Of a stretch of 27,562 bases of DNA, positions 18,169-26,880 are shown piece by piece. How positions within the stretch are numbered: the first letter of the stretch is position 1; each line of letters begins with the position of its first letter. The DNA comes from a virus. The stretch lies in the IMG/VR virus record IMGVR_UViG_3300042861_000760, positions 1 through 27,562 of that record; one strand, written 5' to 3'. Under the pieces are notes generated by a model that was given only the letters and a program-made list of their open reading frames with translations, did not search any database and had not been told where the DNA came from. The translations under genes and the position numbers were made by a program.

Positions 18169-19017
<849 letters not shown>

Positions 19018-23260: not shown

Positions 23261-23300
23261 GAGCAGCCCGTTCGAGCCGGGCGTGGGGACGCAAGAAAAA

Positions 23301-23323
23301 CGCCCCAGGAGGGACCTGGGGCG
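23301..23323 (-). terminator. Hairpin with T-tract on the minus strand
   Basis: CGCCCCAGG (23301-23309) pairs with CCTGGGGCG (23315-23323). AAAAA precedes it on the plus strand (23296-23300), so on the minus strand it is a textbook intrinsic terminator followed by TTTTT. No leftward gene ends here; it may stop antisense transcription or partly terminate the rightward operon. Confidence 0.55.
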
Positions 23324-23343
23324 CACAGAAAGGATACCTGCGC

Positions 23344-23946
23344 ATGGCGACAACCAGCGCGGCCATTTCATTGAGCCGCATAAAGAGGGAGATCGTGGAA
23401 ATTCCGATCAAGGGCACGGCACCGCTTATCGTTCACCGCTGGAGCGAGAAGGCACGCGAAATGATGCTTGCTGCCCAGCAGGGAAAGAAGACACCAAAGC
23501 AAGCCAAGGACCCGCAGGCCGATTACGAGTCCAGCATGTACCGCCTGACCGACGGCGGCCACGGCTTCCCAGTCATGGCCTTCAAGGCCGCCACCGTGAA
23601 GGGCGGCGGTCGAGTGTTCGGCAAGTCCGTCAAGATGACTGAACTGCGCCAAGTCTTCACGTTCATCGCCGATGGTCTCGGGGTCGACGGCACGCAGCTC
23701 GCCCGCATCAACGGCGAGCCCACGATGCGCGAGGACATGGTTCGCGTCGGCATGGGCACCGCTGACATCAGATTTCGCGCCGAATACCGCGACTGGACCG
23801 CCCTCCTGCGCGTCGAATACGTCCCCAGCGTCATTGACCTCGAGTCCGTCGTCGCCCTAGTCGACGCCGGTGGCACCAATGGCGTCGGCGAGTGGCGTCC
23901 CGAGAAGTCGGGCAGCTACGGAACCTACGAGGTGGTCGGACTATGA
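23344..23946 (+). CDS. Conserved phage protein of the recombination/replication cluster
   Basis: 200 aa, ATG at 23344. It begins with beta-strand EIPIKGTAPLIVHRW, then a helical charged region, a segment FPVMAFKAATVKGG and a C-terminal VGEWRPEKSGSYGTYEV. This gene, with the KGTAPLIVHR and VGEWRPEK motifs, is widespread in tailed phages, near exonuclease and replication genes. Its function is not established. A single-strand annealing or RAMP/ferredoxin-like RNA/DNA-binding fold is suggested by position and the repeated strand-helix-strand pattern only. Confidence 0.5.
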   Translation: MATTSAAISLSRIKREIVEIPIKGTAPLIVHRWSEKAREMMLAAQQGKKTPKQAKDPQADYESSMYRLTDGGHGFPVMAFKAATVKGGGRVFGKSVKMTELRQVFTFIADGLGVDGTQLARINGEPTMREDMVRVGMGTADIRFRAEYRDWTALLRVEYVPSVIDLESVVALVDAGGTNGVGEWRPEKSGSYGTYEVVGL

Positions 23947-24380
23947 GTGTCGGGCAGCACCTTCAAGAGATCTACGACGATAACGGCGCAATCACTCCGC
24001 AGCTTGTAGTTGAGACCGCCCGTGATGACGAGCACCCCCTTCACGGCCACTTCGTCTGGGACGACACAGTTGCCGGCGAGCTCTACAGGTGCAACCAGGC
24101 CGCGCAGATGATTCGGCGCGTGACCATCCGTCGAACGACACCAGACGGCGACGAGGTAGTCACTCGAGCCTGGGTCTCTCGCACCGAGATTGAGGGCCAG
24201 GCCGGCGACGAGCCGCCCATCGGCCAGTACCTACCCGTCGAGGTCGTGATCTCTAGCCCCGACCTGCGTCCAAAGTACGAGCAGGCAATGGAGCGCGAAT
24301 GGAAGGCGCTCTACGCGAAATACAAGGAATACCAGACGTTCATCGCAATGGTCACCGCAGACATACAGGCGGTGGCATAG
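23943..24380 (+). CDS. Conserved phage protein, unknown function
   Basis: 145 aa from ATG 23943 (ATGA overlap). The N-terminal half contains PLHGHFVWDDTVAGELYRCN followed by AAQMIRRVTIR; a common phage family has this His-x-x-Phe-x-Trp-Asp and helix pattern. The C-terminus is a charged helix (YEQAMEREWKALYAKYKEYQ). It is coupled to the preceding gene. The stop codon at 24378-24380 is followed by the noncoding repeat region. Confidence 0.58.
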   Translation: MSVGQHLQEIYDDNGAITPQLVVETARDDEHPLHGHFVWDDTVAGELYRCNQAAQMIRRVTIRRTTPDGDEVVTRAWVSRTEIEGQAGDEPPIGQYLPVEVVISSPDLRPKYEQAMEREWKALYAKYKEYQTFIAMVTADIQAVA

Positions 24381-24389
24381 CTCATGGCA

Positions 24390-24429
24390 GCGGCGACGGT
24401 CTTTGCTCAGGTTCGACTCCTGAGGCCGC
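24390..24429 (+). ncRNA. T-arm-like minihelix (tRNA-like element)
   Basis: A perfect six-pair stem CTCAGG/CCTGAG with loop TTCGACT (24406-24424) is identical in layout to a tRNA T-arm (GGTTCGACTCC). It stacks directly on GCGGC (24390-24394) / GCCGC (24425-24429), which would form an acceptor-like helix of five pairs with an 11-base bulge. TAGCTCATGGCAG (24378-24390) resembles a D-arm box. No full cloverleaf, anticodon arm or CCA end forms, so it is not a standard tRNA gene. Confidence 0.45.
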
Positions 24430-24434
24430 ACGAC

Positions 24435-24694
24435 GGCTGGGTCAGGCTAGGCACGGCACGGCGCGGCTTGGCAAGGCAGGCGTGGCCCGTTAGGGCTAGG
24501 TACGGCTCGGCGCGGGCGGCGTGGTTGGGCAAGGCAGGCATGGCAAGGCGTTGCACGGCGCGGCCGGGCTAGGCGAGGCATGGCAGGCGGGGCATGGCAC
24601 GGCACGGCTGGGTGGGGCACGGCGCGGCTAGGTAAGGCACGGCAGGCAAGGCACGGCTAGGCAACGCGAGGTACGGCGAGGCGTGGCTGGGCAT
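24435..24694 (+). repeat. Array of 53 GGCNN-type pentamer repeats
   Basis: From 24435 to 24694 the sequence divides into 53 consecutive units, 48 of five bases and 5 of four bases. 50 of 53 begin with GG and 43 with GGC. The remaining two bases vary (AC, AA, TA, GC, AT, GT and others), with C rare in the first variable position. The five-base period rules out coding. It occupies most of the 348-base gap between the 23943 gene and the primase gene. Candidate roles are a replication origin, a structured RNA or a G-quadruplex-rich element. Confidence 0.9.
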
Positions 24695-24728
24695 GGAAAT
24701 GGACCACTAACAACGTTCAAGGAGCACC

Positions 24729-26732: not shown

Positions 26733-26797
26733 GCGGGAATCAGGACACCATCCGAAAAGCCCCGAGGGAATCACTGATTCCCACTGATTCCTACTGA
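26729..26797 (+). CDS. 22-aa leader peptide (possible)
   Basis: MSGNQDTIRKAPRESLIPTDSY, start ATG at 26729 overlapping the primase stop (ATGA) with GGAGGG at 26720-26725. It ends at 26795-26797, nine bases before the ATG of the next gene, which lacks a ribosome-binding site. It may couple translation; its residues are partly dictated by the TGATTCCC repeats. Confidence 0.4.
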   Translation: MSGNQDTIRKAPRESLIPTDSY

Positions 26798-26880
26798 TTC
26801 CCCCCATGATTCCCGACGATTCCCCGCAGTTGCCTGGCCTGTTTCCCGTTCCCCCCCCTATAGGGGGGAACCGGGAATCA
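26735..26880. repeat. TGATTCCC repeat array
   Basis: Direct copies start at 26775, 26785, 26795, 26807 and 26817 (TGATTCCC, one ending T, one starting C), spaced 10, 10, 12 and 10 bp. Inverted copies (GGGAATCA) are at 26735, 26766 and 26873. 26766-26782 is a perfect palindrome with one central base. The one-turn spacing suggests a protein-binding array. Confidence 0.82.

What the first reader, a model, noticed from the sequence alone, without database searches (positions are those of the whole stretch)
24435..24694. Fifty-three-unit GGC-NN pentamer array before the primase gene
Seen: the region divides into 53 contiguous units (48 of 5 bases, 5 of 4 bases); 50 begin with GG, 43 with GGC; the following two bases vary with a bias against C in the first variable position. 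The period is 5, not 3, so it is not coding. Established: G-rich tandem arrays can form quadruplexes, and repeats near replication genes can be origins. Inference: origin, structured noncoding RNA, or a sequence whose variable positions carry information. I do not know a described element of this form.
Basis: partly seen in the sequence, partly recalled or inferred. Interest (0 to 1): 0.88.

Follow-up and report, generated by a model that had tools for sequence, protein, structure and literature searches.

The report
Phage VIPR guide-RNA repeat array
The 53-unit GGC-NN repeat is the guide array of a newly described phage weapon called VIPR: the two variable letters of each repeat together spell a DNA address, and two neighbouring stretches spell sites in the capsid gene of small satellite-like elements that probably parasitise phages of this kind.

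Summary
The array is real and exactly as described (53 units: 48 of 5 nt, 5 of 4 nt; 43 GGC, 50 GG). It is not an origin and is not tied to the primase. It is the guide-RNA (vrRNA) array of a VIPR system (Viral Interference Programmable Repeat; preprint PMC13142463, 2026). The gene two upstream (23344-23946) encodes Vipr: its family profile matches PDB 36pp "SUSP1 Vipr protein" at E=5.4e-44, and its AlphaFold model matches Csm3-type Cas7 (Z 12.0). The gene between (23943-24380) is a candidate accessory (vap). Of 120 contigs fetched by the repeat pattern alone, 85 encode vipr. The cassette (about 23291-24718) is absent from close relatives. Read with the published 1-nt-skip code, block 5 matches perfectly, and block 4 matches 63 nt upstream, in the major capsid gene of tail-less, satellite-like elements. 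A sister phage's array matches the same elements' portal and capsid genes, with twin guides that differ only by the two serine codon families. Not mentioned in the preprint's main text: GGCA tetramers punctuating guides, and a tRNA-like minihelix before the array, interspersed between arrays in four other loci. New member of a known kind; expression untested.

The parts
23291..24718 (+). VIPR cassette, an insert relative to L001 and L002 (boundaries approximate)
   Evidence: blastn: the window matches L002 (89%) and L001 up to 23290 and again from 24719; the stretch between is missing in both
23344..23946 (+). vipr gene, 200 aa (phrog_4652), RAMP/Cas7-like guide-RNA-binding protein
   Evidence: family profile vs PDB 36pp_D 'SUSP1 Vipr protein' E=5.4e-44, next Csm5 0.13; AlphaFold pLDDT 92; Foldseek best hits all CRISPR Cas7-type RAMPs; Csm3 Z 12.0, rmsd 3.3, 151 aligned
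23943..24380 (+). candidate vipr-accessory protein (vap), 145 aa, phrog_15946; N-terminal winged-helix-like region and long C-terminal helix (inconclusive)
   Evidence: phrog_15946 E=6e-23; homologs in 29 of the loci scanned, all of which also carry vipr; AlphaFold pLDDT 90.5; best Z about 5, partly to winged-helix regulators
24390..24432 (+). tRNA-like minihelix (acceptor-like 5-bp stem, GACGGTC link, T-arm with UUCGACU loop) just upstream of the array
   Evidence: covariance model R1; in 9 sequences 100% of cells paired, 18 doubly compensatory cells, covariation 0.72 vs 0.16 shuffled, 0/500; repeated on 27 further matches, 0.65 vs 0.12
24435..24694 (+). vrRNA guide array, 53 GGY-NN units
24435..24474 (+). 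guide block 1: TG CA TA AC AC GC TT AA (target not found)
24479..24513 (+). guide block 2: GT CC AG TA AC TC GC (target not found)
24518..24532 (+). short block 3: GT TG AA
24537..24581 (+). guide block 4: AT AA GT AC GC CG TA GA AT; matches 'I-R-V-T-A-R-Y-D' in the satellites' major capsid gene
   Evidence: 14/18, 63 nt upstream of the block-5 site in the same gene of L164
24586..24640 (+). guide block 5: GG AT AC AC TG GG AC GC TA AA AC; first 9 units match the 3' end of the satellites' major capsid gene (GITTWGTA*)
   Evidence: 18/18 in L139 and L138/L164
24645..24694 (+). guide block 6: AA AC TA AA GA AC GA GT TG AT; largely shared with L007; target not found
24475..24478 (+). tetramer GGCA between blocks 1 and 2 (others: 24514-24517 GGGC, 24533-24536, 24582-24585 and 24641-24644 GGCA)
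   Evidence: across all arrays 53% of tetramer gaps are 7-11 pentamers vs 20% shuffled, max 25%

Best explanation
The array is the guide-RNA locus of a phage-encoded VIPR system. Shown: it sits in a cassette of vipr, a candidate vap, a tRNA-like minihelix and the array; it is on the coding strand of those genes; it splits into blocks of 7-11 GGY-NN pentamers (plus one 3-unit block) separated by tetramers. Inferred from the published system: the region is transcribed and cut into guide RNAs; Vipr subunits coat each guide, about one pentamer per subunit; GGY is held by the protein; and the exposed NN pairs bind double-stranded DNA with one target base skipped between pairs (xN1N2xN3N4...). Supported here by sequence matches: blocks 4 and 5 address two sites 63 nt apart in the major capsid gene of tail-less, satellite-like elements. 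Inferred: binding represses that gene and protects the phage from elements that would use its particles. Inferred, and not in the preprint's main text: the tRNA-like minihelix upstream marks where host tRNA-processing enzymes (RNase Z, RNase P) free the guide precursor.
For: Vipr identity: profile vs PDB 36pp E=5.4e-44; fold matches to Csm3/Cas7 RAMPs. Linkage: 85 of 120 contigs fetched by the repeat pattern alone encode vipr, nearly always on the same strand as the array. Form: conserved GGY with variable NN as in the preprint. Turnover: vipr-vap DNA of window and L007 is highly similar (proteins 99% and 96%), but the arrays differ in length and in most NN pairs. Code: the 18-base 1-nt-skip pattern of block 5 hits only two contigs in IMG/VR, at the same site of homologous capsid genes with different wobble bases; block 4's best match lies in the same gene (P about 0.002-0.009 from shuffled unit order near the site). 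Across 505 blocks from 134 loci against the satellites, at least 17/18 is reached 4 times with skip 1 (3 of them in the window and L007) and never with skip 0, 2, 3 or shuffled order. L007 guides 1 and 2 differ only in TC/AG, the two serine codon families at one portal site: guide 1 is 16/16 in six elements, guide 2 is 16/16 in L170. In all five sites the skipped bases fall on third codon positions (read).
Against: No transcript, processing or binding was measured. Blocks 1, 2, 3 and 6 have no convincing target. Block 4 has two mismatched units (AA in the middle, AT at the end). The array lacks the separate ~100-nt vrRNAs with an invariable 3' tail described for type II systems; the preprint reports other array forms (staggered arrays among them), but its supplement could not be read, so the type is unassigned. 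That the targets are satellites of this phage is inferred from gene content only; no common host was shown.
Confidence: 0.9

Rival explanations
1. The array is a replication origin or iteron-like element serving the downstream primase/helicase.
For: It lies directly upstream of a Prim-Pol/AAA primase.
Against: Relatives with 92% and 85% identical primase lack it. Arrays elsewhere follow vipr/vap, and their other neighbours vary (portal, terminase, helicase and others). Variable NN units do not make a repeated protein-binding site. Decoded blocks match capsid and portal genes.
Confidence: 0.02
2. A VIPR-derived array that is decayed or whose guides now serve another use (for example regulation of the phage's own genes), so the satellite matches are historical.
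For: Several blocks have no target; some units are degenerate (GTTAG, TGCAC, CGCGA).
Against: The vipr and vap reading frames are intact and the fold is confident. Window and L007 arrays differ strongly while their proteins are nearly identical, as expected of active turnover. No good self-target in the window.
Confidence: 0.07
3. A simple pentamer slippage repeat with no function.
For: Tandem form.
Against: GGY is kept while NN varies; tetramers are spaced at 7-11 units; repeated linkage to one protein family across unrelated contigs; non-random matches under one decoding rule only.
Confidence: 0.01

Closest known systems
VIPR systems (Viral Interference Programmable Repeat; SUSP1 and P. fulva type II; PMC13142463)
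   Same: Vipr family protein, small accessory gene, GGY/NN tandem repeats, phage-borne, 1-nt-skip targets aligned with codon wobble positions, satellite-like elements as targets
   Different: One contiguous 53-unit array split by 4-nt units rather than separate ~100-nt vrRNAs with a conserved tail; tRNA-like minihelix before the array; actinophage context; type not assigned
Type III and type VII CRISPR Cas7 proteins (Csm3 and relatives)
   Same: RRM/RAMP fold, glycine-rich C-terminal loop, expected to coat a guide RNA
   Different: No CRISPR repeat-spacer array and no other cas genes found beside it; gapped dinucleotide code with a 5-nt period; single small protein
Hammerhead-interspersed vrRNA arrays (mentioned in PMC13142463)
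   Same: An RNA processing element placed between guide arrays
   Different: Here the interspersed element is a tRNA-like minihelix (L036, L124, L190, L199), not found by Rfam at gathering score

Membership tests
VIPR system | Vipr protein: small RAMP with RRM core and glycine-rich loop | tested here: met
   profile vs 36pp_D E=5.4e-44; Csm3 Z 12.0; conserved GxGxxRP...G motif
VIPR system | tandem GGY motifs alternating with hypervariable NN | tested here: met
   49 of 53 units begin GGY; NN differs between window and L007 while genes stay near-identical
VIPR system | NN pairs match targets under the 1-nt skip rule | tested here: met
   block 5 18/18, block 4 14/18, L007 guides 16/16 and 21/22 in the same elements; other skips at chance
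VIPR system | adjacent vap gene | tested here: inconclusive
   conserved neighbour phrog_15946 found in 29 loci; whether it is one of vap1-6 could not be checked (supplement not available)
VIPR system | vrRNA units of 9-16 repeats with an invariable 3' tail | tested here: inconclusive
   blocks of 7-11 units (and one of 3) separated by tetramers; no stable fold after the array; the preprint says architectures vary between types
VIPR system | array transcribed into small RNAs that co-purify with Vipr | not testable with these tools
   needs sRNA-seq and pull-down
VIPR system | targets are competing phages or satellites | tested here: met
   targets are capsid/portal genes of tail-less, satellite-like elements; that they parasitise this phage is inferred
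CRISPR-Cas class 1 | multi-gene cas locus with repeat-spacer array | tested here: not met
   flanking genes are exonuclease, phrog_870, vap candidate, primase; no long direct-repeat/spacer array
Replication origin with iterons | array conserved with the replication gene it serves | tested here: not met
   absent in L001/L002 despite 92%/85% primase identity
G-quadruplex element | G-run tetrads | not tested
   the array is mostly GG, not GGG, runs; no quadruplex prediction was run

The most novel reading that the evidence does not exclude
VIPR arrays of this clade are punctuated and processed by a phage tRNA-like minihelix (acceptor stem plus T-arm, no anticodon arm). Host RNase Z/RNase P would free guides from between the minihelices, a natural counterpart of engineered tRNA-guide arrays. 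The same element serves as an intercistronic processing signal in many phage genomes.
Probability: 0.4. Interest if true: 0.72.

Novelty: new member of a known kind. Interest (0 to 1): 0.62.

Why it matters
VIPR was described only in 2026 and characterised in E. coli and Pseudomonas systems. Here a metagenomic actinophage array, found blind from its period, decodes under the same 1-nt-skip rule to satellite-like capsid and portal genes. That is an independent check of the code on natural guides. The twin guides that cover both serine codon families suggest guide pairs shaped to follow a protein site through codon changes that wobble skipping cannot absorb. The tetramer punctuation and the tRNA-like minihelix give concrete, testable rules for where guides begin and end.

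Tried and rejected
Origin/iteron reading: rejected, the array goes with vipr/vap and not with primase. Self-targeting within the window: best matches at shuffle level. Skip-rule test on VIPR loci alone: only a slight excess for skip 1, not decisive. Block 1 pattern: six hits, all in ~38% GC contigs, judged chance. Block 6 (9 units) and block 4 exact patterns: no hit. Conserved 3' tail after the window's array: no stable fold. Rfam: no hit for the region; ARAGORN finds no tRNA in the window. Promoter scan: nothing near the array. Vap fold: no confident match.

Full report
OBSERVATION. The array at 24435-24694 is exactly as described: 53 units, 48 of 5 nt and 5 of 4 nt, 43 beginning GGC, 6 GGT and 1 GGG. 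Its unit-chain score (140.5) exceeds every Markov simulation of orders 1-3 (highest of 300: 97.5, 120, 128.5), and nothing else in the window approaches it. It lies on the + strand, the coding strand of its neighbours.

LINKAGE. A scan of IMG/VR for eight perfect GGCNN units returned 120 contig stretches and stopped at its limit. I scanned the genes beside those arrays blind. The commonest families were phrog_4652 (24 of 84 same-strand upstream neighbours, 14 of 64 downstream) and phrog_15946 (15 and 4). These are exactly the two genes just upstream of the window's array. An iterated profile search found a phrog_4652 protein in 85 of the 120 loci, nearly always on the same strand and usually a few nt, or one vap gene, away from an array. 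The same pair lies beside an array in cluster F mycobacteriophages such as Mattes and ByChance, annotated as hypothetical proteins.

IDENTITY. The family profile matches PDB entry 36pp, 'SUSP1 Vipr protein', at E=5.4e-44; the next hit is Csm5 at 0.13. The AlphaFold model (pLDDT 92) matches CRISPR Cas7-type RAMPs throughout the Foldseek list and Csm3 at Z 12.0. The preprint PMC13142463 describes VIPR: a RAMP called Vipr, an accessory vap gene, and vrRNAs of alternating GGY/NN motifs whose NN pairs recognise double-stranded DNA with one skipped base. The window meets the protein, repeat and targeting criteria.

CASSETTE. The window matches L002 (89%) and L001 up to 23290 and again from 24719; the ~1.4 kb between is missing in both, and L001 carries a different gene there. 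The primase is therefore incidental. L007 has a primase only 57% identical, but vipr and vap proteins 99% and 96% identical. Its array is 379 nt instead of 260, and most NN pairs differ, apart from the last ~9 units. Arrays thus change much faster than the genes beside them.

PUNCTUATION. The tetramers are not noise. Over all arrays, 63% of tetramers are GGCA, and 53% of gaps between tetramers are 7-11 pentamers, against 20% (maximum 25%) when unit lengths are shuffled within arrays. I read them as guide boundaries. The window then holds five blocks of 7-11 pentamers and one of three.

TARGETS. I converted block 5 to its 1-nt-skip pattern (18 fixed bases). IMG/VR holds two matching contigs. 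Both matches lie at the 3' end of the same gene, with different wobble bases, and encode GITTWGTA-stop. The gene is a major capsid gene in an element with terminase, portal, scaffold and capsid followed directly by an integrase. Relatives are mostly 8-11 kb; the one annotated further (L169) has integrase, replication initiator, terminase, portal and capsid but no recognised tail gene. Block 4's best match in both contigs is 63 nt upstream in the same gene on the same strand; near that site shuffled guides do as well with probability 0.002 (L164) or 0.009 (L139). L007's guides also point to these elements: guide 6 to the capsid gene's other strand (21/22 in L164), guides 1 and 2 to one portal site, NPASADAI. 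Guides 1 and 2 differ only at one unit, TC versus AG, the two serine codon families: guide 1 is 16/16 in six elements that use TCN, guide 2 is 16/16 in L170, which uses AGC. In all five sites the skipped bases fall on third codon positions, as the preprint reports for SUSP1 targets. As a control, 505 blocks from 134 loci were compared with the same elements: at least 17/18 occurs four times with skip 1 (three from the window and L007) and never with skip 0, 2, 3 or shuffled order. A test on VIPR loci alone was not decisive. Blocks 1, 2, 3 and 6 remain without a target.

A tRNA-LIKE MINIHELIX. Just upstream of the array (24390-24432) lies a hairpin with an acceptor-like stem, a GACGGTC link and a T-arm with the canonical UUCGACU loop. 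L007 has it with compensatory changes. In L036 and L124 it recurs three times, before, between and after two arrays, and in L190 and L199, which also carry vipr, it lies between array stretches. In nine sequences all cells pair, with covariation 0.72 against 0.16 in shuffles; on 27 further matches it is 0.65 against 0.12, although that alignment was fitted to the model. Most of the 22 IMG/VR contigs that hold the motif have no array: there the hairpin sits between a stop codon and the next gene's ribosome-binding site, often in several copies, and some copies end in CCA. Rfam gives no hit at gathering score. I infer a general phage processing signal that this VIPR clade uses to free its guides; no cleavage was tested. 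The preprint's main text does not mention tRNA; its supplement could not be read.

VERDICT. The identification as a VIPR guide array is strong. That blocks 4 and 5 address satellite-like capsid genes is well supported by sequence. Repression of those elements in nature, the system type, the role of phrog_15946 as vap, and processing by the minihelix are inferences.

Noticed in passing
window 24390-24432; L007:4519-4561; L036 (3 copies); L124 (3 copies); L190; L199; L191, L192, L194, L207, L208 and others: A covarying tRNA-like minihelix without anticodon arm, found between genes in many phages and interspersed in some VIPR arrays; no Rfam hit at gathering score in the loci searched.
   Followed up: partly
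L007:4561-4939, guides 1 and 2: Twin guides identical over 8 units except TC vs AG, covering both serine codon families at one portal site of the satellite-like elements.
   Followed up: yes
Mattes gp52/gp53 (L016), ByChance gp40/gp41 (L017), Gordonia phages UmaThurman gp39 and Pipp gp42, 33 phage records in all: GenBank 'hypothetical proteins' that are Vipr relatives; in Mattes and ByChance a vap-type gene follows and an array lies just upstream.
   Followed up: partly
L139, L162-L181: A family of mostly 8-11 kb tail-less elements with terminase, portal, capsid and integrase, probably capsid-encoding satellites of actinophages.
   Followed up: partly
window 23291-24718 versus L001 and L002: Cassette hot spot between the phrog_870 gene and the primase: VIPR in the window, another gene in L001, nothing in L002.
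   Followed up: partly
L136, L103, L087: Arrays followed by a recurring sequence like ACCGCGAxxGGAGAGCGGGGTA, possibly the vrRNA 3' tail of another VIPR type.
   Followed up: no
window 26772-26825: Five imperfect ~10-bp repeats (ACTGATTCCC) just after the primase gene.
   Followed up: no
window 18960-18991: Perfect (CT)16 repeat inside an integrase-like reading frame on the minus strand.
   Followed up: no
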